From assembly GCF_000716675.1 (NCBI RefSeq), contig NZ_JNXT01000055.1, positions 1 to 56,208 of the forward strand: DNA of 56,208 nt, in the 5' to 3' direction. This document shows, one piece after another, positions 6,262-17,294 of this stretch. The stretch comes from Streptomyces alboflavus. GTDB lineage: Bacteria; Actinomycetota; Actinomycetes; Streptomycetales; Streptomycetaceae. How positions within the stretch are numbered: position 1 is the stretch's first letter; the number at the start of each line of letters is the position of its first letter. Below the pieces are notes generated by a model. The model had not been told where the DNA came from and did no database searches. It was given only the letters and a program-made list of their open reading frames with translations. The translations under genes and the position numbers were made by a program.

Positions 6262-6472
6262 CCATGCCTCCCCGCGTGGATGAATGACAGGGTGACCCCT
6301 CTCACATTGGTCTGTCGAGAGTGCGTGGGCGGTACGTACGGGAACCAGTAGGTATGTCGTTCTCGTCTACCACGGGGGTTAAGCCCTCACACAGGACACT
6401 GGTACATGGTTCGGACAGCGGGTCCGGGCCATGGTTGGGCGTGGCGAGTACGGCAAGCACGAGGAGGCATCG

Positions 6473-9118
6473 GTGGCGGGCGAGTTCCCCGACGGGTCTA
6501 AGACGGTTTCTGGCGGGGGCGCCTCGGACGGTGCGGACGACGCCTCGTCGGCGTCCGGTTCCGCCTCCGGTTCCTCGGCCGGCGCCACGCCGGGCGACGC
6601 CAAGGGAGACGCACGACTGCGCGCCGCGGTTGCCGCGTGGGTCGCGGGATCCGAGGAGGGTGAGTCCGACTCCGGGGCCGGTGCTGGGTCCGGGTCCGGT
6701 GCGGCGTCCGCGTCCGGCTCCGCGGCCGGGGCGGATGAGGCGGCCGAGGGTTCCGGTGCGGCTGCGGGGGAAGGTTCCTCCTCGGGTGAGCCGGAAGGTT
6801 CCTCCTCGGGCGTGGCCGGGGGTGCGGACGACGACGCCGAGGGCGACGACGCCGAGCAGGCGGGGTCCGCGGTCGACATGGCCACGGCCGTGTTCACGGC
6901 TGCGCGGCCCGAGACACGGGCGGACGGCGCCAAGGACGACGACGGTGCGCAGGGCGAGGGCGGGAAGTCCGCGGGTGCCGAGGCCGGGGCCGACGACTCC
7001 GCCGACGCCGAGCCGGAAGACCCCCGGGTCGACCGGGCCACCGCGGTGTTCACGACCGTACGGCCGGGCGTGAACGGCAAGTCCGACGCCGGGCCGAAGG
7101 CCGACGCCGAGCCCGAGAGCGCCACGGATGCGGACTCCGACGCCGACCCGGAGCCCGCCGCCAAGGCCCACACCGACGCCGAGCCCGCCGCCAAGGCCGA
7201 GCCCGCGCCGAAGGCTCCGGCGAAGTCCGACGCCACCCTGACGCTCACCGCGAAGCCCGGCACCGAGCCGAAGTCCGCCGAGAAGCCGAAGTCCGACGAG
7301 AAGCCCAAGGCCGACGACGCCAAGCCGAAGACCGACGCCAAGCCCAAGGTCGACGACGCCAAGCCCAAGGCCGACGACGACAACCCCGACGCCCCCAGCG
7401 GCCCGCTCGACCAGGCCACCGCCGTCTTCAAGGCCGTCCGCCCCGCCTCCGCGGGCGTGGACCAGCCGACGACGATGCTGAAGCTCGGCGACGTACCCGC
7501 CGAGCGCAAGCCGAAGCCCGACGACGCCGCGAAGCCCACGGCCGCCGCAGCTGAGGCAGCTGAGTCTGAGTCTGAGCGCACCAGCAAGTTCGTCGCGCTC
7601 AAGCCGCTCGACGAGCCCCGCGTGAAGCCCGAGCCGAAGGCGCAGCCCGCTCCGGGCACGAAGCCGGGTACGAAGCCCGGCCAGGAGGGCAAGGCCCTGC
7701 CCGGACAGGCCGCCGCGCAGCCCTCGGCCCCGGCGGGCGCACCCGCGCGGGCCCAGCAGGGCGCGGGCACCCCGGTCCAGGCGCCCCCGCCCGGAGGCCG
7801 CACCAGCCAGCAGCCCCTGCCCCCGCTGCCGCCGCTCGACCTGCTCGCCGAGCTGACGAACACGCCGCCGCCCCCGGAGACCCCGACCCGCACCATCGTG
7901 CGCCGGGTCAAGATCTGGACGCCGCTCGTCGTGCTCCTCGCGATTGTGTTCGCAGTCGCACAGGCGTTGCGTCCGCTTCCGGAGCCGAAGCTGACCCTGA
8001 CGGCCGCCACCACGCACTCCTTCGAGGGAGGCAAGCCGTCGATCCCGTGGCCCGAGGACGGTCAGGCGGCCATGGACGTCGACGGCATCGGCAGCTTCGG
8101 CTCGTCCGGGAAGCAGAAGCCCGTGCCGATCGCGAGCATCGCCAAGGTGATGACGACCTATCTGATCCTGCGCGACCACCCGATCAAGAAGGGCGGCGAC
8201 GGCAAGACCATCGAGGTCGACGCCGAGGCGCAGCGGCACTACGAGAAGGGCAAGCCGGCCAACGAGTCCGTGGTCAAGGTGACCGAGGGCCAGAAGCTCA
8301 CCCAGTACGAGGCCCTGCAGGCCGTGATGCTGCCGTCCGCCAACAACGTGGCCCGGCTGCTCGCGCGCTGGGACAGCAAGGGTTCCGAGGACAAGTTCGT
8401 CGCCAAGATGAACAAGACCGCCAAGGAACTCGGCATGAAGAACACGCACTACACGGACCCCAGCGGCCTCGACAAGACGACCGTGTCGACCGCCGAGGAC
8501 CTGGTGAAGCTCGGCCGCGTCGCGATGGAGAACCCGACCTTCAAGGAGATCGCGGGCCAGCGCAGCTACGAGGACATCAACGGCGACAAGCAGGACAACT
8601 ACTTCGGTCTCGTCCCGACCGTCGCCATCGGCATCAAGACCGGCACCACGTCGGCCGCGGGCGGCAACATCCTCTTCGCCGCGGAGAAGCGCGTCGGCGG
8701 CAAGACCCACATGGTCATCGGCGCGGCCCTCGCCCAGTTCGGTTCGCAGGGCGTGGCCAACATCGACAAGGTCACCAACGTCACCAAGGACCTGATCGCG
8801 GCCGGGCAGGACGCCCTCAAGGCCAAGACCGTGGTGAAGAAGGGCCAGGTCGTCGGCGAGGTCGACGACGGCCTCGGCGGCACCACGCCGGTCGTCGCCA
8901 CCAAGGACGTCACCGCCGTCGGCTGGTCCGGCCTGACCGTCAAGGCGGAGCTCTCGGACGGCGGCAAGACGCCCCCGCACTCCGCGAAGGCCGGGACGGT
9001 CGTCGGCCGCCTGCTCGTCGGTGACGGCACCACCAGCGGCGCGATCAAGGTTCCGGTGGCCCTGCAGAAGGACCTCTCCGAGCCGGGCCTCGGCGCGAAG
9101 CTGACCCGCGTGAGCTGA
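6473..9118 (+). CDS. D-alanyl-D-alanine carboxypeptidase (peptidase S11) with long disordered N-terminus
   Basis: This 881-residue protein has a roughly 480-residue Ala/Asp/Glu/Pro/Lys-rich cytoplasmic region, one membrane helix (about 481-501, TPLVVLLAIVFAVAQAL) and an external S11 domain. The active-site motifs are intact: S555-IA-K558, SAN at 622-624 and KTG at 722-724. It should trim the terminal D-Ala of peptidoglycan stem peptides. I chose the GTG at 6473 because GAGGAGG lies five bases upstream; an ATG at 6431 has no good ribosome site. The cytoplasmic region holds at least three copies of an ATAVF motif. From memory, S. coelicolor SCO4439 is a similar long enzyme involved in spore wall maturation. 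Confidence 0.92.
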   Translation: MAGEFPDGSKTVSGGGASDGADDASSASGSASGSSAGATPGDAKGDARLRAAVAAWVAGSEEGESDSGAGAGSGSGAASASGSAAGADEAAEGSGAAAGEGSSSGEPEGSSSGVAGGADDDAEGDDAEQAGSAVDMATAVFTAARPETRADGAKDDDGAQGEGGKSAGAEAGADDSADAEPEDPRVDRATAVFTTVRPGVNGKSDAGPKADAEPESATDADSDADPEPAAKAHTDAEPAAKAEPAPKAPAKSDATLTLTAKPGTEPKSAEKPKSDEKPKADDAKPKTDAKPKVDDAKPKADDDNPDAPSGPLDQATAVFKAVRPASAGVDQPTTMLKLGDVPAERKPKPDDAAKPTAAAAEAAESESERTSKFVALKPLDEPRVKPEPKAQPAPGTKPGTKPGQEGKALPGQAAAQPSAPAGAPARAQQGAGTPVQAPPPGGRTSQQPLPPLPPLDLLAELTNTPPPPETPTRTIVRRVKIWTPLVVLLAIVFAVAQALRPLPEPKLTLTAATTHSFEGGKPSIPWPEDGQAAMDVDGIGSFGSSGKQKPVPIASIAKVMTTYLILRDHPIKKGGDGKTIEVDAEAQRHYEKGKPANESVVKVTEGQKLTQYEALQAVMLPSANNVARLLARWDSKGSEDKFVAKMNKTAKELGMKNTHYTDPSGLDKTTVSTAEDLVKLGRVAMENPTFKEIAGQRSYEDINGDKQDNYFGLVPTVAIGIKTGTTSAAGGNILFAAEKRVGGKTHMVIGAALAQFGSQGVANIDKVTNVTKDLIAAGQDALKAKTVVKKGQVVGEVDDGLGGTTPVVATKDVTAVGWSGLTVKAELSDGGKTPPHSAKAGTVVGRLLVGDGTTSGAIKVPVALQKDLSEPGLGAKLTRVS

Positions 9119-9255: not shown

Positions 9256-10977
9256 CTAGTCCTTGTCGGGATCCGGCTCGCACTTCGGCTGCGGCCCCGA
9301 CGGGCCGCCGTAGTTCGAGGCGATCCGCACGTCGCCCGGCTTCTTCACCGTCAGGCGCGTGAAGTCGCCCTCCTTGTAGAGGCAGCCGCCCTCCGCCCAC
9401 AGCCACGGCGAGTAGGCGACGCGGACGGTGACCGAGCCGGGCTCGGACATGCGGACCGTGAGGTGGGCGCCGTCGGCGGTCACCACGGAGCCGGGCTTGT
9501 CGACCAGCGGGACGGCGTCCTTGACGCGGTAGATCCGCCAGTTGTCGTCGTGCCAGACCTGGTCCAGATAGCTCGGCTCGCTGGTCACCAGGTCGTGCTC
9601 GCGCTCGGCGGCGCCGTCCGGCTTGCCGTCGCCCTTGTAGAGCACCACGAAGCCGACGGCCCAGTGGTTCAGCCAGGCGCGGTACGAGGACGACGTGAAG
9701 GCGCCCTCCTTCACCTCGGAGACCGGGCGGCCCTCGTAGAAGAGCCGGCCGCGCTCCACGTCGGCCTGGCGGTTCCAGCCGCGCGCCATGTTGATGTACG
9801 GCGAGAGGACGGCCGCCTCGCGGTGGTCGCGGGCCGGGACGACCTCGACGCGGGTGCGTTCGGCGCCCAGGCGGTTGAGCTCCTTGACGACGCCGTCGGT
9901 CTCGACGGCCCAGGTGGGCACCTTCGTGTACGCCACTATGTCGGAGGTCGTCTTCACCGACACCCAGATGAGGGACAGGACGACGGCGCAGATCAGCACC
10001 GTCCGGTGCCAGAAGTGGCGCGGCGTGCCGCTGGGCCGCAGCAGGCGCAGGGTGGAGAACTTCCGGTTCAGGACGGCGGCGAGCAGTATCGGCGGGGCCG
10101 CGATCTCGGCGAAGCGCTCGACGTTCGTACCGATCGGGGTGGGGATCAGCCAGGTCAGCACCACGCCCACCGCGTACACCGCGGCGCCCACCTTCAGGAG
10201 CTTCCAGGAGCGCGGCGCCGCGAGGATGACGACCCCGCAGAGCAGCACCGGCGGGAAGATCCTTATGAACGCCATCGGCTGCTCGCCCTCGAAGGGGAAC
10301 AGCCATGTCGTCAGGCCGACGACGACGAACGGCGGCAGGATCAGGGCGAGCCCCTTGCCCCACTCGCGCAGCAGCAGATAGGCGCCGCCCACCACGACGA
10401 GGAAGAGACCGGCGACCGGGCTGCCCATGGTCGCGAGCGCGGCGCAGAGCGTGGCGCCCGCGACCCGGCGCCGGGTGGCCGTACCGGTGACCGCGAGGAC
10501 CGCGCCGACGCCGAACGCGACGCCCAGCATGAACGTCGCCCGGCCGCACACGACCTGGCACCACATCGAGAAGCCGACGATGACGGAGGGCCACAGCGGC
10601 TTGCGGATGCCGCTGCGCATGATGATCGCGACACCCATCCAGGTGGCGGCGATGCCGGAGGCCGCCGCCACGGTCCGGACGCCGAACGCGGCCATCAGAT
10701 ACGGCGAGATGACGCTGTAGTTGGCGGTGTGCAGGCCGCCGTACCAGAAGAGGCTGTACGCCGAGCCCGGGTAGCGCCGGGCGAAGCCCGCCCAGGCCTC
10801 CTGGGCCGCGAGGTCGCCGCCGCCCGTCGCGAACACGGTCCACCACAGCAGATACAGCGGCAGCACGCCCGCGGTGATCAGCAGCGGCATGCGGTAACGC
10901 ACGTGCCACGGTTCGGGCATGCCACTGCCACGGTCGGCTCGGCTGAGAGTCGGGGTGGACAGTTCGGCAGAGGCCAC
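9256..10977 (-). CDS. Polytopic membrane protein with large C-terminal extracytoplasmic domain
   Basis: This 573-residue protein has about ten hydrophobic helices between residues 30 and 350, starting with MPLLITAGVLPLYLLWWTVF. A soluble C-terminal region of about 220 residues contains VWHDDNWRIYRVKDAVPLV, a pattern seen at the end of actinobacterial GT-C-like membrane proteins. Such proteins are often labelled MFS transporters, but the helix spacing does not convince me. The GTG start has only a weak ribosome site, and an in-frame ATG at residue 20 is an alternative. The last codons are duplicated just beyond the stop (a 15-bp near-repeat around 9241-9270). Function unknown; a cell-envelope glycosyltransferase-like role is a guess. 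Confidence 0.7.
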   Translation of the reverse strand: MASAELSTPTLSRADRGSGMPEPWHVRYRMPLLITAGVLPLYLLWWTVFATGGGDLAAQEAWAGFARRYPGSAYSLFWYGGLHTANYSVISPYLMAAFGVRTVAAASGIAATWMGVAIIMRSGIRKPLWPSVIVGFSMWCQVVCGRATFMLGVAFGVGAVLAVTGTATRRRVAGATLCAALATMGSPVAGLFLVVVGGAYLLLREWGKGLALILPPFVVVGLTTWLFPFEGEQPMAFIRIFPPVLLCGVVILAAPRSWKLLKVGAAVYAVGVVLTWLIPTPIGTNVERFAEIAAPPILLAAVLNRKFSTLRLLRPSGTPRHFWHRTVLICAVVLSLIWVSVKTTSDIVAYTKVPTWAVETDGVVKELNRLGAERTRVEVVPARDHREAAVLSPYINMARGWNRQADVERGRLFYEGRPVSEVKEGAFTSSSYRAWLNHWAVGFVVLYKGDGKPDGAAEREHDLVTSEPSYLDQVWHDDNWRIYRVKDAVPLVDKPGSVVTADGAHLTVRMSEPGSVTVRVAYSPWLWAEGGCLYKEGDFTRLTVKKPGDVRIASNYGGPSGPQPKCEPDPDKD

Positions 10978-11158: not shown

Positions 11159-12508
11159 TCACCCCGGCGCGGGGGGTGCGCAGAGGAGATCCGGGGCGAG
11201 GGTCCCGCCGCCGGTCTCCGCGCGGACGGTGTCCAACTGGCCGAGGAGGGTGTCGAGGCGGGCGGCCGAGGGGTCGCGGAAGTAGCGGAGCACCGCGCGG
11301 TGGAAGGCGTCCCGCAGCGCGGGCGGCATCGCGTCCGAGGCGTCGAAGCAGAGCGCCTTCGCCCCGCCCGTGAGGATCGCCGCGACCTCGTCGCCGCCCG
11401 GGTCGGTCGGCCGGGGGTCGCCCGCGCCGGGGAAGAACGGCCGCAGCTCCGGCTCGGCCTCCTCGTGCCACAGCCGTCGCGCCGCACCGCCGGAGAGCCG
11501 CTCGACCAGCTCGCGCGCGGCCGGGCCGCCCCGGAAGGCGGCCGCCATGTCACCCGCGACCTCGTACGCGCCGTCATGGGCGGCGGGCCCGGGCAGGAAC
11601 CGGGCCGACGGATCCACCCGCACACCCCCACCACCACCCTCTTTTGCGCCCCCTTTACCCTTTGCGTTCGCATACAGATAGCGGATGAAGGCGCTCTGGT
11701 GCTCATGCGTGCAGTCCAGCTCCGGCGAGTTGAGCAGCCCCCGGGGGCGCGGCCGCTCGGCGTCCGGATCCCGGGTCCCCTCGTACGAGGTGGTCAGCGA
11801 CAGGTCGACCGACTTCTTGGACCGCTCGCCGAGCAGCCGCGCCCACGCGGTCCAGGCCCCCCGCACCGCGGCACTGCGCCAGCTCAGCCGCCCGCTCGCC
11901 CACCGCGCGTACACGTCGGGGCCGGACCGGTGCAGGACCAGGTCCTCGATCCAGTCGGTGCCGGGCCACCCGGAGGTGGCCTGCGAGGCGAGCCCGACGC
12001 ACCACCGAGGGTTCCCCTCGCTCCCCTTGTTCCCCTTGCTCCCCTTGCTCCCCTTGCTCCCCTTGTTCTTCTTGCTCCAGACCAGACTCTTCAGGTCGAC
12101 CTTGAGGGGGACCCAGTAGGTGTGGCGGGAGCCGTTGACGTCGATGCGGGGGGCCCAGGGCGGGTGGCCGGGGGTGTCGAGGGGTTCGAGGCGGTTGCCG
12201 CGGGCGTACTCCGTCAGCTCGCCCAGGCTGTTGAGGACGGCGACGTCCGGCGGGTCACCGGCCTCCAGCTGCGCGACCAGGGTCTCGCGCAGGGAGCGGG
12301 TGCCGCGGTACGCGTACGTCTTGCCGGTGCCGTCGTCGAGCCGCTTCAGCATCGCCTCGAACGCGATGCCCTCCGCGCCGGTCCACGGGCCGAGGACGAC
12401 GAGGGTGTCGCGTCTCTCGGCGGAGCAGCCGCCGCTGGTGAGGGCGGCGACGAGGGCGAGGGCGGTGAGCCCGGAGGCCAGGGCGGTACGCCGGGGGCGG
12501 CGGGTCAC
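11159..12508 (-). CDS. Lipoprotein solute-binding protein, family 1 type, in a kinase operon
   Basis: This 449-residue exported lipoprotein has an Arg-rich N-terminus, a hydrophobic core and a lipobox-like TSGGC ending at Cys28. The mature part begins DTLVVLGPWTGAEGIAFEAM and continues with GDPPDVAVLNSLGELTEYA, the layout of carbohydrate-type family 1 binding proteins. No permease or ATPase gene is nearby; instead it lies last in an operon with a PknG-like kinase and a membrane protein, so a sensing role is likely. The GTG start overlaps the upstream stop (GTGA), which implies translational coupling. A Lys/Gly/Ser repeat array interrupts the protein near residue 150. Confidence 0.82.
   Translation of the reverse strand: MTRRPRRTALASGLTALALVAALTSGGCSAERRDTLVVLGPWTGAEGIAFEAMLKRLDDGTGKTYAYRGTRSLRETLVAQLEAGDPPDVAVLNSLGELTEYARGNRLEPLDTPGHPPWAPRIDVNGSRHTYWVPLKVDLKSLVWSKKNKGSKGSKGSKGNKGSEGNPRWCVGLASQATSGWPGTDWIEDLVLHRSGPDVYARWASGRLSWRSAAVRGAWTAWARLLGERSKKSVDLSLTTSYEGTRDPDAERPRPRGLLNSPELDCTHEHQSAFIRYLYANAKGKGGAKEGGGGGVRVDPSARFLPGPAAHDGAYEVAGDMAAAFRGGPAARELVERLSGGAARRLWHEEAEPELRPFFPGAGDPRPTDPGGDEVAAILTGGAKALCFDASDAMPPALRDAFHRAVLRYFRDPSAARLDTLLGQLDTVRAETGGGTLAPDLLCAPPAPG
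12011..12073. repeat. Seven 9-bp tandem repeats inside the binding-protein gene
   Basis: Seven consecutive units of the form G(C/T)TCCCCTT run from 12011 to 12073; the fourth to sixth copies are identical and the outer ones have drifted. On the coding strand each unit is three codons, giving KGS/KGN repeats. Length changes would stay in frame. Confidence 0.9.
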
Positions 12509-13611
12509 GGGGCGGCTCCCGGGCGGGTGAGGCGGACGTACTCGCGGCGGTAGGAGTGCAGGGTGACGCCGGTGACGGCGGCGCTGAGCAGGCCCGCGGG
12601 GACCACCCAGGCGGGCGCGGGGCCGAGGAAGGCGAGGCGGCCCTCGGCCAGTTCGCGGTCCACGGAGTCCTCGAGCGCGGCGATGACGTACCGGTCGGGG
12701 GCGGCGAACGGGTGGGTCTCGGCGGCGGACTCGATGCGCGGGGATGTCTGGGTGGACAGGGCGCGGGCGGTGGACTCGGCGGCGCGCTGGGCCTTCTGTA
12801 CGAGGACGGCGTCGGCGGCGAGCAGGGGCAGCGCGAGCAGGGGCAGAGCGGCGGCGAGCAGGGGCAGGCTGACGTAGAGGCGGAAGCGGTGGTGCAGGAA
12901 GACCTGGGTGCGCCACAGGCCGTGGACCAGGAGCAGGAACGCGACGCCGGAGACGGCGAACGCGGCGAGGACGTCGGCCCCGGGGTCCGCGCGGTCGGCG
13001 ATGCGGTCCTGGAGGGCGCGTTCGAGGGCGGTGACGCGGTCGACGACGGCGGTGGCGGTGGAGCCGGTGGCGGGGCGGCAGACGAGGGTGGCGGGGTCCG
13101 CGCGGGTGGAGCACAGGATGCTGCGGGCGTACGCGAGGGAGGCCTCGCGCAGGGCGCGGTCGGCGGCGTTGGCCTGGGCCCAGGCGGTCCAGGTGCCGTA
13201 GTCGGCGACGAGGCCCGCGACGACGTCGAGGTCCTGGCGCTCGGAGGTGGAGAGGGCGCCGCTGCGGGCCACCTGGTTCAGGCGCTGGGTGGCGCGGGTG
13301 GTGCGGGTGCGGTAGCGCTCGCTGAGGCCGCTCAGCTCGACGGCGCGGCCCGCGCGCAGGCTGTCGGCGGCCTCGCCGTCGGCGATCTGGAGCGAGGCGC
13401 GGGCGTCCGCGAGGTCGCCGAGGGCGGGGGCGGCGCGGTCCTGGATGTACGCGGCGTCCGCGCGGACGGTGGTGTGGGCCCAGGCGAAGGGGGTGAAGGC
13501 GAGGGCGGTGAGGAGGGGGAGCGCGACGAGGCGCTCCCGCAGGTAGGCGTGGTTGCGGCAGCCCCGGACGCCGGGCGCCCACACCCACTTCCACAGGACG
13601 GAGGGCTTCAC
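12505..13611 (-). CDS. Four-helix membrane protein with external helical domain (GlnX-like sensor)
   Basis: This 368-residue protein has a first membrane helix near residues 28-46, an external all-helical domain of about 170 residues (many heptad-like Ala/Leu/Arg stretches), two helices close together (about 215-236 and 247-275), a second loop and a last helix near 330-350. The layout resembles GlnX, which in mycobacteria links a periplasmic binding protein to the kinase PknG; I see no strong sequence motif, so that is by architecture and gene order. The GTG at 13611 has GGAGG five bases upstream. The frame stays open to 13857, so a longer form with 8-residue repeats is possible. Its stop overlaps the binding-protein start. 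Confidence 0.75.
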   Translation of the reverse strand: MKPSVLWKWVWAPGVRGCRNHAYLRERLVALPLLTALAFTPFAWAHTTVRADAAYIQDRAAPALGDLADARASLQIADGEAADSLRAGRAVELSGLSERYRTRTTRATQRLNQVARSGALSTSERQDLDVVAGLVADYGTWTAWAQANAADRALREASLAYARSILCSTRADPATLVCRPATGSTATAVVDRVTALERALQDRIADRADPGADVLAAFAVSGVAFLLLVHGLWRTQVFLHHRFRLYVSLPLLAAALPLLALPLLAADAVLVQKAQRAAESTARALSTQTSPRIESAAETHPFAAPDRYVIAALEDSVDRELAEGRLAFLGPAPAWVVPAGLLSAAVTGVTLHSYRREYVRLTRPGAAP

Positions 13612-13961
13612 GGGCGCCTCCGGTCGGGGTGGGCGCGGGGTCCGGTGGCGGTGTGGCGGGACCGGGCCCCGGCGGTGCTGCCGCCGCGCGCGTGCCGGGC
13701 CGTCGTGACCACGCTTCTCCTGGCCGTCGTGACCACCCTTCTCCGGGCTTTCGGCTCCGCCCTTCTCCGGGCCTTCGGCTCCGCCCGAGCGGGGGAGGAC
13801 CCTGCCGCCCTGCGGAACGACTGCCCCCGGGGACGGCGGCAGGGGGGCGGCGAGCACGGCCGGAGGGCGGTCGCGCTCGCTCGCGGCGCCTTGGCTCCCG
13901 CGAGGGCGGGGCGCCGGCCCCGCGGTGGGCGGCCTGCCGGGGCGGTCGAGGGGGGCCTCAT
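13608..13961 (-). other. Possible small coupling ORF between kinase and membrane gene
   Basis: The 346-bp gap holds an open frame of 117 residues. It starts with an ATG overlapping the kinase stop (ATGA) and ends with a stop overlapping the next gene's GTG (GTGA). The predicted peptide is Arg/Pro/Ala rich with 8-residue repeats and uses AGA/AGG codons. Second codon positions are unusually G/C rich, which argues against coding. It may be a real coupled peptide, an upstream extension of the next gene in another frame, or untranslated spacer. Confidence 0.3.
13698..13791. repeat. Four 24-bp tandem repeats
   Basis: Units 13698-13721, 13722-13745, 13746-13769 and a shorter 13770-13791 follow each other directly. 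The first two differ at two positions; the third switches its left half to a second sequence type, shared with the fourth, while keeping CCCTTCTCCG. The array lies in the kinase/membrane gene gap and encodes 8-residue repeats in any open frame. Confidence 0.85.
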
Positions 13962-16252
13962 CGGGTGCCCCTGTGGTGGCGCAGGCCGAAGGGGCGGATG
14001 GCGTAGGCGCGGTCCAGGAGGAGTTCGGCGAGGGAGGTGTCGGAACCCGCGGGGTCGCGGGCCGCCTGCTGGGCCAGGCCCACGCAGAAGCGGGAGAGAT
14101 CCACCCGGACCTGCCGCTCGGACACGGGGAAGCCCAGCCGGCCGTCCGCCCCGCGGGCGACGTCCCGCAGCCCCGCCGCCGACACCGCGCCCCCGCTCAG
14201 GAGCGCCCGCGCCACCTCCCACACCTGCGCCCGCATCCGCAGCCGCGCCTGCTCGTCGGTGAGCCCGTGCGCGTAGAAGAGCCGGCCGAGGCGCCGCACC
14301 ACCTCCGCCAGGTCCTCGGCGCCCCGCGCGTGGTCCGCGCACACCCGCACCGCCCCGACGCGCGCCGCCGTCCGGTACCGCGAGTGCTGCGCCACCGCGT
14401 CCAGCGCCTCGACCGCGTAGGCGAGCGCCCGCGCCCCGCCGAGCGCGAGCCGTGCCCGCGCCGCCCCGAACGCCGCCCCGCCGAGCGAGGGATTGCGCAC
14501 CCGCACCGCCTCGTGGAACGTGAGCGCCTCCCGCCACCGCCCGAGCCGCTCCGCGCAGTGCCCGAGCGCCAGCTTGGGCGCGTACTCGCCGGGGATCGCG
14601 GCGTACACCCGGTCGAAGTGCCCGCGGGCGAGCGGCACGTCGTCGGCGGCGAGCGCGAGGAGCCCGCGGTGCCAGGCGAGCCGCCAGTCGTACGGGGCCG
14701 CGCCGGGCCCGATCGCCCGCTCGGCGCGGACCAGGGCGACGGCGGCGTCGTCCAGGCGCGGCGGCACCTGCGCGCCCGGCCGCAGCGCGATCCGCAGCAG
14801 CAGCCGGCAGCGCAGCAACTGCACTTCGGGCGAGCCCGGCCACTCCGCGGTGTGCTGGAGCAGCGCGGCCGGGTCGTCGTCGCCGAGGCGGCTCAGCTCG
14901 GCGTGGCGGGCGTCGTCGGGATCGGGGCGGGGGACGGGCAACTCCTTGGCGAGGTCGCCGGGGCGTGGGGCTTCGTAGCGGGCGGGTGCGGGGTGCGGGC
15001 CCACCCACCGCGACAGCGGTGGCGGCACGCCGAGGCCGCCGTCGAGCGCGAACGCCGACTGGAGGAACAGCGGCGACGGCTCGAAGGTCTCCACGCCGAG
15101 GCGCAGGGAGCGCAACTCCCGGAAGACGCCCCGCAGTTGCTCGTCCATCTCGCGGGCCGTGGCGAACCGGTCGGCGCGGTCCGGGCGGGTGGCCCGGCGC
15201 AGCGCGCGGGCGAGGGAGAGCAGGCCGAGGCCGAGGCCGTCGGGCGGCAGGGGCACCGTCATCAGCTGGGTGGCCCGGTCCTGCGGGGGGCCCGGCGGCT
15301 CGGGCGGTCCTTCCGGGCGGGGCAGCGGCGGGAGCCCGGCGAGGTCGTCCAGGTCGCCGAGCCCGCACAGGTGGCGCAGCGTCTCGCCGAGGCTGTACAG
15401 GTCGTCGGCGCCGGTGGACTCGCCGCACGGGCCGACGGTCGGCGCGCGGTAGTCCGTGGAGGTCAGGCCCGGCGCCCCGGCCCGCCGCACGCTGCCGACG
15501 TCGACGAACTTGACGGCGGACCCGTCGTGCATGACGTTCGACGGCTTCAGGTCCCCGTACACCTTGCCGCGTTCGGGCGCGTGCAGATACCCGAGCCCCG
15601 CCAGGAACCGCACCCCGTACGCGAGCACGAACTCGTAGAAGCGGGAGCCGCCGAACTCCTCCGGGTACAGCTGCGCGCGGGCCCGCACCTCTTCGAGGGT
15701 CGGCCCGTCCACGTACTGCAGGACGAGGAAGTCGCCCACGTCCGGATGGTGCCCGTAGTTGAAGACCCGGATGATGTCCTCGTGGTTGAGCTCGACCAGC
15801 TCCTGCCGCTCGCGCGCCAGGGGGTGGTCGGGGGAGTCGGGGGCGGGCTGCGGGGCGCCGCACTCGCGACCGGCGTTGTCCGGGCGCAGGATCTTGATGG
15901 CGACCTCGCGCCCGCCGACCTTCGTGTCGAGCGCCAGATACACCTCGCCCATGCCGCCGTACCCGAGCGGCCGCACCACCCGGTACTGCCGGGCGAGCAG
16001 CCGGTCCGGCGGCAGCGGCAGGCCGTCGAGCGCGTCCGGGTCGTCGCCGCGCGAGACCGCCCGGTCAAGCAGGGTGATCTCGGGCAGGACGGTCGGGTCG
16101 GGGCTCTCCGGGGGCAGCTCCACGCGGGCGGCGCGCGGCGGCGGCCCGGCGACGAACAGGGGCGGCAGGGACGACTCGGGGCGCGACTCGCCGCCCCAAC
16201 CCGACCCGGTCCGCGTCGAGTTGGGTCGGGTATCGGTCCCGTCCCCCTCCAT
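13958..16252 (-). CDS. pknG: PknG-like serine/threonine protein kinase with TPR region
   Basis: This 764-residue cytoplasmic kinase has no membrane helix. A disordered N-terminus leads into VLPEITLLD near residue 55. The kinase domain runs from about 88 to 330: glycine loop GYGGMGEVY (97-105), VAIK Lys120, catalytic loop YGDLKPSN (Asp234) and metal-binding Asp251 in FVDVGS rather than DFG. These loops match PknG more than Pkn receptor kinases. A helical TPR-like region fills the C-terminal half. The Cys-pair rubredoxin domain of mycobacterial PknG is absent. The gene heads an operon with a membrane protein and a solute-binding lipoprotein. A TATTCT box eight bases before the ATG hints at a leaderless message. 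Confidence 0.9.
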   Translation of the reverse strand: MEGDGTDTRPNSTRTGSGWGGESRPESSLPPLFVAGPPPRAARVELPPESPDPTVLPEITLLDRAVSRGDDPDALDGLPLPPDRLLARQYRVVRPLGYGGMGEVYLALDTKVGGREVAIKILRPDNAGRECGAPQPAPDSPDHPLARERQELVELNHEDIIRVFNYGHHPDVGDFLVLQYVDGPTLEEVRARAQLYPEEFGGSRFYEFVLAYGVRFLAGLGYLHAPERGKVYGDLKPSNVMHDGSAVKFVDVGSVRRAGAPGLTSTDYRAPTVGPCGESTGADDLYSLGETLRHLCGLGDLDDLAGLPPLPRPEGPPEPPGPPQDRATQLMTVPLPPDGLGLGLLSLARALRRATRPDRADRFATAREMDEQLRGVFRELRSLRLGVETFEPSPLFLQSAFALDGGLGVPPPLSRWVGPHPAPARYEAPRPGDLAKELPVPRPDPDDARHAELSRLGDDDPAALLQHTAEWPGSPEVQLLRCRLLLRIALRPGAQVPPRLDDAAVALVRAERAIGPGAAPYDWRLAWHRGLLALAADDVPLARGHFDRVYAAIPGEYAPKLALGHCAERLGRWREALTFHEAVRVRNPSLGGAAFGAARARLALGGARALAYAVEALDAVAQHSRYRTAARVGAVRVCADHARGAEDLAEVVRRLGRLFYAHGLTDEQARLRMRAQVWEVARALLSGGAVSAAGLRDVARGADGRLGFPVSERQVRVDLSRFCVGLAQQAARDPAGSDTSLAELLLDRAYAIRPFGLRHHRGTR

Positions 16253-16373: not shown

Positions 16374-17294
16374 TCACGTCACCGGGTACGCCACATCGCA
16401 CACGTCGTCTCCGGGCCCCGCCGCGTCCCAGTCCGTGAAGTACACCTCGCGGCACGGGCCCGCCTGGCTCAGTCCCTCCCGCGCGATCCACTCCTCGACG
16501 GCGTCGTACGCGCCGATGATCTGCGGATAGGCCACCTGCGCCTTGGCGATGCGGGCGTAGGCGAGGCGCCGGGCGGGCTCGACGCGGGCCCGCACGTCCC
16601 GCTGCCGCCCCTGCGCCTTCGCCCAGGCGCGGGCCGCCTCGGGGTCGGCGACGGGTACGCAGGCCTCGGCGGGGCCGTCGCTGTCCTCGGTGACCTCGGC
16701 GTGGTAGATGACGAACGGCGAGGCGGTGACGCCGCCGCAGAGCTCGTCGGCGACCTGCTCCAGGCGCCCGAGCGAGGCGTCGATCCAGGTGGACAGCTCG
16801 TGGGTGAACACATGGCGCCGCTCGCAGAGGACGAAGGCCTCGGGGACGTCGGCGGTGCGGATCTCGAACGTGCCGTACATGGTGGGGCTCCTTCCCGACA
16901 GCCGGCCACGGAGGTAGTCCACGAGGGTGCGCTGGGCGGCGATCCGCTCCTCGACACCGGCCCAGTACGCCCCGAGCGCCGTCGCGGCGGCCGCGTCGTC
17001 GAGCCCCAGCAGCGCCCCGATGTCCGCGAGCGGCATGTCGAGGCGGCGCAGGAGCGCGACGGTGCGGGCCCGCTCGACCTGGTCGGTCCGGTAGTAGCGG
17101 TAGCCGGTCGCCTCGTCCACGTACGCCGGGGGCAGCAGGCCCTGGCGGTCGTACAGGCGCAGGGCCTTGGCGGACAGACGGGTGCGGGCGGCGAAGGCGC
17201 CGAGCTTGAGGAGGCCGGGCTCCCTGCCGGGCTCCGGCCCCCCGCCGAGTGCCGGTTCGCTGTCGAGTGCGTGCTCTCTGCCGGGTACGTCCAC
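16374..17294 (-). CDS. MerR-family regulator with GyrI-like effector domain
   Basis: This 306-residue protein has a winged helix-turn-helix after a 27-residue lead (LLKLGAFAARTRLSAKALRL, then LLPPAYVDEATGYRYY) and a dimerisation helix near 85-125. The C-terminal GyrI/BmrR-type ligand fold (residues 140-306) contains FVIYHAEVTEDSDGPAEACV. The family activates genes, often efflux pumps, in response to hydrophobic cations or drugs. No pump is adjacent; the gene lies 54 bp downstream of the PBP1 gene, with three GGTGACC-type copies in and around that gap as candidate operator. The start is a GTG with GGAGA eight bases upstream. Confidence 0.88.
   Translation of the reverse strand: MDVPGREHALDSEPALGGGPEPGREPGLLKLGAFAARTRLSAKALRLYDRQGLLPPAYVDEATGYRYYRTDQVERARTVALLRRLDMPLADIGALLGLDDAAAATALGAYWAGVEERIAAQRTLVDYLRGRLSGRSPTMYGTFEIRTADVPEAFVLCERRHVFTHELSTWIDASLGRLEQVADELCGGVTASPFVIYHAEVTEDSDGPAEACVPVADPEAARAWAKAQGRQRDVRARVEPARRLAYARIAKAQVAYPQIIGAYDAVEEWIAREGLSQAGPCREVYFTDWDAAGPGDDVCDVAYPVT

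What the first reader, a model, noticed from the sequence alone, without database searches (positions are those of the whole stretch)
11159..16252. Kinase / membrane sensor / orphan binding protein operon: PknG pathway with a sugar-type receptor
A PknG-like kinase (13958-16252), a four-helix membrane protein with an external helical domain, and a lipoprotein solute-binding protein are transcribed together, the last two coupled by GTGA. No permease or ATPase gene is present, so the binding protein is probably a sensor. In mycobacteria PknG works with GlnX and the amino-acid receptor GlnH. Here the receptor looks like a family 1 (carbohydrate-type) protein and the kinase has no rubredoxin Cys pairs. 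That suggests the same signalling chassis with a different input, which I have not seen described.
Basis: partly seen in the sequence, partly recalled or inferred. Interest (0 to 1): 0.8.

Follow-up and report, generated by a model that had tools for sequence, protein, structure and literature searches.

The report
PknG-type kinase with sugar-type receptor
Many Streptomyces carry a second copy of a nutrient-sensing kinase pathway in which the usual amino-acid receptor has been replaced by a sugar-type binding protein, suggesting that this bacterial signalling device is modular.

Summary
Confirmed. On the minus strand, 16252-11159 encodes a PknG-family kinase (Pkinase + PknG_TPR), a four-TM helical membrane protein and a family-1 solute-binding protein, the last two overlapping by GTGA. 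No ABC permease was found in the window. The kinase groups with PknG against 27 other kinases of this genome. The membrane protein is a distant GlnX homologue. The receptor shows no sequence relation to GlnH, and its best fold matches are carbohydrate-binding proteins. The same genome keeps a canonical rubredoxin-PknG/GlnX/GlnH operon, so this is a parallel, receptor-swapped paralogue.

The receptor occurs in 96 of 238 Streptomyces sampled, and related operons in Amycolatopsis, Micromonospora and others. The fuller operon is trypsin-like protease - kinase - VWA protein - GlnX-like protein - receptor; the window copy lacks protease and VWA. In 8 loci membrane protein and receptor are one polypeptide; in 8 (plus one truncated) the protease is fused to the kinase. 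The fusions bear on the GlnH-GlnX contact, which a 2022 paper calls undemonstrated.

The missing rubredoxin cysteines are lineage-specific: 51 of 74 relatives have them. A 2018 paper mentions SCO1468, probably this kinase, in one sentence. Ligand and substrate are unknown. New variant of a known kind.

The parts
13958..16252 (-). PknG-family Ser/Thr kinase without rubredoxin domain; kinase domain about 15985-15374, TPR domain about 14971-14054
   Evidence: Pfam Pkinase 60.4 and PknG_TPR 113.6 bits; best PDB sequence match M. tuberculosis PknG 2pzi, E 6e-43; tree; catalytic residues kept and non-RD like PknG
12505..13611 (-). GlnX-like four-TM membrane protein with a large external helical domain and a shorter second one
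   Evidence: NCBIfam GlnX 29.2 bits, E 5e-7, below cut-off 250; hhalign to canonical GlnX 96.4%, E 1.1e-9; TM layout; model pLDDT 89
11159..12508 (-). Family-1 (carbohydrate-type) solute-binding protein with an export signal and lipobox-like Cys28; proposed receptor
   Evidence: Pfam, below cut-off, alignment A3, model pLDDT 85, fold matches
12505..12508 (-). GTGA overlap: stop of the membrane gene and start of the receptor gene
   Evidence: sequence; a 4-base overlap of membrane and receptor gene in 46 of the 78 related loci in which the two are not fused (its figure of 48 includes the fused L041 and L134)
13612..13957 (-). 346-bp gap between kinase and membrane gene; position of the VWA gene in relatives such as L010; no convincing remnant (best tblastn E 0.004)
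12014..12073 (-). Low-complexity Lys/Gly/Ser insert in the receptor (about residues 146-165), short or absent in most aligned relatives, low confidence in the model
16374..17294 (-). Flanking MerR-type regulator gene; in L010 the protease gene lies between its homologue and the kinase, which shows what the window lacks

Best explanation
The operon is a second, receptor-swapped PknG system. A lipoprotein of the carbohydrate-binding family 1 binds a ligand outside the cell, most likely a mono- or oligosaccharide. Bound or free, it docks on the external helical domain of the GlnX-like protein. That protein passes the change across the membrane to the TPR domain of the PknG-family kinase, which then phosphorylates cytoplasmic targets. 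Shown by computation: family membership of kinase and membrane protein, fold of the receptor, operon conservation, absence of a linked transporter, intact catalytic residues, and natural fusions of membrane protein to receptor in relatives. Inferred: sugar as ligand, direction of signalling, TPR contact, and substrates (the genome has a GarA-like FHA protein, but nothing ties it to this kinase rather than to the canonical PknG). The fuller form in relatives adds a trypsin-like protease, fused to the kinase in one lineage, and a VWA protein, so the ancestral output probably included a proteolytic arm that this lineage has dropped.
For: Kinase: PknG_TPR; clade with canonical PknG 100/100 versus 27 own kinases; K, E, D, N, D catalytic residues in 74 of 74 family kinases, HRD Arg replaced by Gly or Cys in 72 of 74 (Cys in both canonical PknGs, Arg in 28 of 28 other own kinases). 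Membrane protein: GlnX homology, same 4-TM layout. Receptor: fold; 48-row alignment with conserved core. Linkage: membrane gene next to receptor 79 of 81, kinase 76 of 81; profile hits for all five genes in 61 of 74 named loci (at least eight of these are the same contigs, by length, as loci of the first survey). Fusions: membrane-receptor in 8 loci, protease-kinase in 8 plus one truncated. Paralogue of an intact canonical operon. Genomes with the family receptor (96 of 238) and with two or more PknG_TPR matches (97 of 238) coincide in 87, Fisher p 2e-42.
Against: No ligand, interaction or phosphorylation was tested. The window's own receptor is below Pfam's SBP_bac_1 cut-off (20.6 vs 26) and its membrane protein is far below the GlnX model cut-off (29 vs 250). 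The N-terminal Thr that might dock an FHA substrate is not conserved even in close relatives. In L147-L149 the membrane-receptor pair has no kinase beside it, so the pair may serve other outputs. L008 has membrane and receptor genes but no kinase beside its VWA gene. Family-1 fold does not prove a sugar ligand: dinucleotide-, opine- and iron-binding proteins and a glycerophosphocholine-binding one are also in the match lists. Outside Streptomyces, binding proteins that score 177-278 bits with the family profile sit in ABC operons (L151-L156).
Confidence: 0.72

Rival explanations
1. The binding protein is an orphan component of a sugar ABC importer that works with a permease and a shared ATPase elsewhere in the genome; its place beside the kinase is incidental or regulatory.
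For: The only other match of the family profile in this genome (124 bits) is an ABC-linked SBP with two permeases (L063; SBP_bac_1 90.9 bits; best PDB match a chitin-oligosaccharide-binding protein). Outside the genus, ABC-linked SBPs score 177-278 bits with the family profile (L151-L156). Source names often call the family 'alpha-glucoside ABC transporter substrate-binding protein'.
Against: Membrane gene next to receptor in 79 of 81 loci, with a 4-base overlap in 46 of 78 unfused ones; permease hit in 2 of 81 and 1 of 74; eight membrane-receptor fusions.
Confidence: 0.12
2. The five-gene family is a conflict or damage-response module: an extracellular glycan (of a competitor, phage or the own wall) is read by the receptor, and a protease-kinase-VWA assembly executes a response; the window's three-gene form is a remnant or tuned-down version.
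For: Trypsin-like protease with a divergent Trypco2 gene where the place is visible (14 of 20 loci, and 26 of 65); Trypco2 and VWA occur in conflict systems described in PMC7159879 (passages); protease-kinase fusions; weak PADLOC hits of one protease (LmuA 18 bits, RT-Protease_XI 17 bits).
Against: No MoxR, VMAP or EAD family is listed in the Pfam scans of the proteins tested; the PADLOC hits of the kinases are kinase-domain hits and those of the protease are weak trypsin-domain hits; the window lacks protease and VWA; an operon with an SBP_bac_3 receptor of the canonical type also carries VWA, PP2C and FHA genes (L065).
Confidence: 0.13
3. The window copy is a decaying paralogue with little function left: compared with relatives it lacks the rubredoxin domain, protease and VWA genes, and its kinase-membrane spacing is loose.
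For: Differences from L010; Cys cluster in 51 of 74 relatives; 346-bp gap; low-complexity insert in the receptor.
Against: All three frames are open and the catalytic residues intact; near relatives with the same three-gene form have full-length genes (L012, L014-L019); homologues at 95% (P0005) and 98% (P0124) identity are full length.
Confidence: 0.08

Closest known systems
PknG-GlnX-GlnH pathway of Mycobacterium and Corynebacterium (PMC6069109, PMC9769921, PMC8546545; passages read)
   Same: PknG-type kinase with TPR domain; four-TM helical membrane protein of the GlnX kind; extracytoplasmic binding protein without linked transporter; genes linked
   Different: Receptor is family 1 (carbohydrate-type) instead of family 3 (Asp/Glu-binding GlnH); no rubredoxin domain in this copy (as in Corynebacterium); gene order kinase-membrane-receptor; second external domain of the membrane protein shorter; a canonical operon coexists in the genome
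Streptomyces kinases linked to binding proteins SCO1468 and SGR_4432 (one sentence in PMC6069109)
   Same: SCO1468 is probably the kinase of this family: in S. coelicoflavus (L172) the order fmt-rsmB-protease-kinase-VWA-membrane-receptor-rpe fits the S. coelicolor gene numbering as recalled
   Different: That paper lists them as examples beyond PknG and, in the passages read, gives no TPR, GlnX or family-1 receptor assignment; SGR_4432 was not placed here
Actinobacterial pknG operons with PP2C and VWA genes (L064, L065)
   Same: Kinase-first order; VWA and GlnX genes between kinase and receptor
   Different: Receptor is SBP_bac_3; PP2C gene (and in L065 an FHA gene) present; no trypsin-like protease in the stretches seen
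MSMEG_1200/StpK7 kinases with a fused binding domain (NCBIfam NF052427; mentioned in PMC6069109)
   Same: Kinase coupled to a binding protein
   Different: Single polypeptide; the window kinase scores only 39.6 bits against a cut-off of 900
Trypsin/Trypco2/VWA conflict systems (PMC7159879, passages read)
   Same: Relatives carry a trypsin-like protease, often with a divergent Trypco2 gene, and a VWA protein
   Different: No MoxR, VMAP or EAD listed in the proteins scanned; coupled to an extracellular receptor; the window copy lacks these genes

Membership tests
PknG kinase family | Kinase domain followed by PknG_TPR domain | tested here: met
   Pkinase 60.4, PknG_TPR 113.6 bits, both above cut-off
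PknG kinase family | Groups with PknG rather than with other Ser/Thr kinases | tested here: met
   100/100 split from 27 own kinases; 58 rows, 28 of 74 family kinases used, root by midpoint
PknG kinase family | Non-RD catalytic loop with catalytic Lys/Glu/Asp/Asn/Asp kept | tested here: met
   (non-RD as a PknG hallmark is recalled; both canonical PknGs here show it)
PknG kinase family | N-terminal rubredoxin-type metal site (absent in Corynebacterium PknG) | tested here: not met
   absent in the window; Cys cluster in 51 of 74 family kinases, three of the 23 without it have a short or missing N-terminus in the gene call; PknG_rubred over cut-off in L034, L044 and L062
PknG kinase family | Phosphorylates GarA/OdhI | not testable with these tools
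   FHA protein with an ETTS motif, GarA-like by recalled motif, is in the genome (L097); N-terminal Thr of the kinase not conserved
GlnX | Reaches NCBIfam GlnX cut-off (250 bits) | tested here: not met
   29.2 bits; 57-109 bits in 8 of 9 relatives tested
GlnX | Sequence-profile homology to GlnX | tested here: met
   hhalign 96.4%, E 1.1e-9, 206 columns, 38 versus 3 sequences
GlnX | Four TM helices with two external domains | tested here: met
   hydropathy and model; second domain about 60 instead of about 175 residues; orientation in the membrane inferred
GlnH (SBP_bac_3, Asp/Glu receptor) | SBP_bac_3 sequence | tested here: not met
   no SBP_bac_3 hit; hhalign 0.5%
Family-1 carbohydrate-binding protein | Reaches Pfam SBP_bac_1 cut-off (26 bits) | tested here: not met
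   window copy 20.6 bits; relatives L034 39.1, L060 52.6 and L133 36.8
Family-1 carbohydrate-binding protein | Family-1 fold over the whole mature protein | tested here: met
Family-1 carbohydrate-binding protein | Binds a sugar | not testable with these tools
   needs a binding assay
ABC importer | Linked permease | tested here: not met
   none in the window; 2 of 81 and 1 of 74 related loci have a permease hit over 50 bits
Trypsin/VWA conflict system | Protease and VWA genes in the operon | tested here: not met
   no hit among the window's genes; profile hits in 65 and 59 of 81 relatives

The most novel reading that the evidence does not exclude
Actinobacterial PknG signalling is a modular receptor-kinase platform. 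The GlnX-type membrane protein accepts binding proteins of unrelated families, so one chassis reads amino acids and, in parallel in the same cell, carbohydrates. In its fuller form the carbohydrate receptor gates a joined protease-kinase, a bacterial transmembrane receptor with both proteolytic and phosphorylating output. The natural membrane-receptor fusions show the contact that the mycobacterial and corynebacterial work has not yet demonstrated.
Probability: 0.4. Interest if true: 0.8.

Novelty: new variant of a known kind. Interest (0 to 1): 0.62.

Why it matters
[quoted passage not shown] A widespread paralogue with a sugar-type receptor would break that rule. It offers fused natural proteins in which the contact can be studied, and it gives antibiotic-producing Streptomyces a candidate route from extracellular carbohydrate to protein phosphorylation.

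Tried and rejected
Orphan importer, conflict system and decaying copy are kept as rivals. Rejected: (a) simple duplication of the canonical operon, because gene order, receptor family and rubredoxin status all differ; (b) remnants of the VWA or protease gene in the window gaps, because the best tblastn seen is E 0.004 over 35 residues among many chance-level hits. A Foldseek search of the membrane-protein model against the PDB gave no match at E <= 0.001. A promoter and terminator scan gave nothing; its consensus is not made for Streptomyces.

Literature: searches found no description of this operon; the only relevant sentence seen was the SCO1468/SGR_4432 remark in PMC6069109. The library holds open-licence PubMed Central papers only. 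Papers were read as found passages, not in full: PMC6069109, PMC9769921, PMC8546545, PMC7159879, PMC1262709, PMC12321487.

Weak points. Gene calls in relatives come from a codon-usage caller written here and trained on this window. It miscalled L011 and L013, where one search shows the membrane gene next to the receptor. Of the 79 loci counted with an adjacent membrane gene, 3 are fusions and 7 were counted by size and place only. The profiles used were built partly from 40 of the same loci (first recognised by BLAST), so their hits there are no independent test; the adjacency is. A protease hit means 30 bits or more and includes genes cut by the stretch end; in L062 and L150 it is only a 201- or 114-aa gene resembling the protease's C-terminal part. 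Five of 81 loci lack a kinase call: L023 and L061 at a contig end, L009 near one, L011 a gene-call artefact, L008 unexplained. Catalytic-triad and MIDAS counts were made on partly truncated genes and are not used. The Cys-cluster counts were faulty and were replaced. Genome lists were transcribed by hand; those searches score only the top candidates per genome, so counts are lower bounds. Long-branch effects in the tree were not tested.
Full report
What is there. On the minus strand the window encodes, in order of transcription, a 764-aa kinase (16252-13958), a 368-aa membrane protein (13611-12505) and a 449-aa exported binding protein (12508-11159). The last two overlap by GTGA. The kinase has Pkinase and PknG_TPR domains above Pfam cut-offs, and its best solved relatives by sequence are the PknG of M. 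tuberculosis (2pzi, E 6e-43) and the TPR-bearing kinase entry 7mxb (7mxb as C. glutamicum PknG is recalled). The membrane protein hits the NCBIfam GlnX model at E 5e-7, far under its cut-off. The binding protein hits SBP_bac_1 only, under the cut-off. The called genes of the window hold no hit to a permease profile made here and no LSGGQ-type ABC signature. The kinase and membrane genes are 346 bp apart, more than in the seven close relatives measured (-4 to 215 bp).

A second copy. The genome holds two matches to PknG_TPR and two to the GlnX model. The other set, on contig C79 (L005), is the canonical one: GlnX (496 bits), GlnH (SBP_bac_3, 96 bits), a coiled-coil protein, and PknG with its rubredoxin domain (102 bits) and TPR (271 bits). 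Between the two sets the kinases are 32% identical over 309 residues of the kinase region, the membrane proteins barely align (E 0.006) and the receptors do not align (E 0.43). The window operon therefore runs beside the canonical one.

Distribution. The membrane protein sequence alone found relatives in 50 of 395 genomes, all in the same genus. With the receptor profile, 96 of 238 Streptomyces genomes have a receptor above 200 bits; the next score is 169 bits, and the two such cases inspected (L138, L139) sit in ABC operons. 97 of 238 genomes have two or more PknG_TPR matches; 87 genomes are in both sets (Fisher p 2e-42; lists transcribed by hand). In a class-wide sample of 394 genomes, genomes outside the genus also score. 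Of those I inspected, G486 (L060), G584 (L062) and G306 (L150) carry kinase, VWA, membrane and receptor genes together; G561, G357 and G436 (L147-L149) show a membrane-receptor pair without an adjacent kinase; G479 (L061) ends at the membrane gene; and six (L151-L156) are ABC operons, with profile scores of 177-278 bits. So outside Streptomyces the score alone does not tell receptor from transporter. A scan of named genomes with one family kinase gave 74 loci, including Amycolatopsis, Micromonospora, Kibdelosporangium, Actinokineospora and Actinacidiphila; 61 of 74 have profile hits for all five genes, none has a hit to the GlnH profile and one (L170) has a permease hit. At least eight of these loci are the same contigs, judged by length, as loci of the first survey.

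The fuller operon. Of 81 loci with a family receptor (78 Streptomyces, 3 others; 40 of the 49 other genomes, 38 more, 3), 79 have the membrane gene adjacent or fused, 76 the kinase, 65 a protease-profile hit and 59 a VWA hit; many misses lie at contig or stretch ends (limits under Tried and rejected). Typical order: protease - kinase - VWA - membrane protein - receptor. Pfam confirms Trypsin_2 above cut-off in L010, L040, L022 and L060, below it in L034, and VWA_3 in L010, L034, L040 and L046. A divergent Trypco2 gene lies next to the protease in 14 of 20 and 26 of 65 loci where that place is visible. L010 has the same flanks as the window (MerR homologue on one side, 9256 and 6812 homologues on the other) and shows that the window lacks protease and VWA; no convincing remnant was found. 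The rubredoxin-type Cys cluster is present in 51 of 74 family kinases and absent in the window's close kin and in the protease-fused lineage, so its absence is lineage-specific. Reading it as a loss rests on the canonical PknGs and most family members having it.

Fusions. In eight loci membrane protein and receptor form one 750-793-aa protein (L041, L133, L134 of the first survey; L188, L189, L194, L195, L199 of the second; no shared contig lengths). In eight loci, plus a truncated ninth (L030), the protease is fused to the kinase, 1182-1431 aa. The three fused membrane-receptor proteins checked have an extra hydrophobic segment before the receptor part, as needed to place it outside.

Other PknG operons. 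In two other actinobacteria (L064, L065) the SBP_bac_3-type operon reads pknG - PP2C - VWA - a small gene (FHA domain in L065) - glnX - glnH (SBP_bac_3 confirmed by Pfam in L064). Kinase-first order and a VWA gene are thus shared with such operons. The receptor is what differs, together with the protease.

Mechanism. By analogy with the GlnH-GlnX-PknG model (passages of PMC6069109, PMC8546545, PMC9769921) the receptor signals through the membrane protein to the TPR domain of the kinase. The fusions support receptor-membrane contact. Ligand, direction and substrate are inference. A GarA-like FHA protein (recognised by a recalled motif) is in the genome (L097), but the N-terminal Thr that could dock it is not conserved among close relatives.

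What was known. [quoted passage not shown] S. coelicoflavus locus L172 reads fmt - rsmB - protease - kinase - VWA - membrane - receptor - rpe (fmt, rsmB and rpe recognised by eye from sequence starts). With the S. coelicolor numbering as I recall it (rpe SCO1464, fmt SCO1473), SCO1468 would be this kinase. No other description was found.

Verdict. It is a new variant of a known kind, with a good test bed in the natural fusions.

Noticed in passing
6431-9118 and 9256-10977: A gene that looks by eye like a D-Ala-D-Ala carboxypeptidase and a polytopic membrane protein without Pfam hit flank the operon; homologues flank it in several relatives too (for example L009, L010, L034-L036, L041), so the neighbourhood is conserved beyond the three genes.
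   Followed up: partly
L005:3328-4647: The canonical PknG operon of this genome holds a coiled-coil gene without a Pfam family above cut-off between glnH and pknG; it shows BLAST similarity to proteases of the paralogous operon, probably in their C-terminal part.
   Followed up: partly
L064, L065: In two other actinobacteria the pknG operon includes a PP2C phosphatase, a VWA protein and (L065) an FHA protein between pknG and glnX-glnH.
   Followed up: partly
L147, L148, L149: Membrane-receptor pairs of this family without a kinase beside them, followed in the same direction by a gene of 372 aa; their output is unknown.
   Followed up: no
L151: An ABC operon outside Streptomyces whose binding protein scores 278 bits with the receptor profile: a possible donor lineage for the receptor.
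   Followed up: no
L107-L114, L140-L144 and L159-L160: A divergent branch of the five-gene operon (receptor about 267-287 bits, membrane protein hardly or not recognised by the GlnX-like profile).
   Followed up: partly
L228: A 1295-aa gene in Actinacidiphila soli matches both the kinase and, weakly, the VWA profile: possibly a further fusion.
   Followed up: no
12014-12073: A Lys/Gly/Ser-rich low-complexity insert in the receptor gene that most aligned relatives lack.
   Followed up: no
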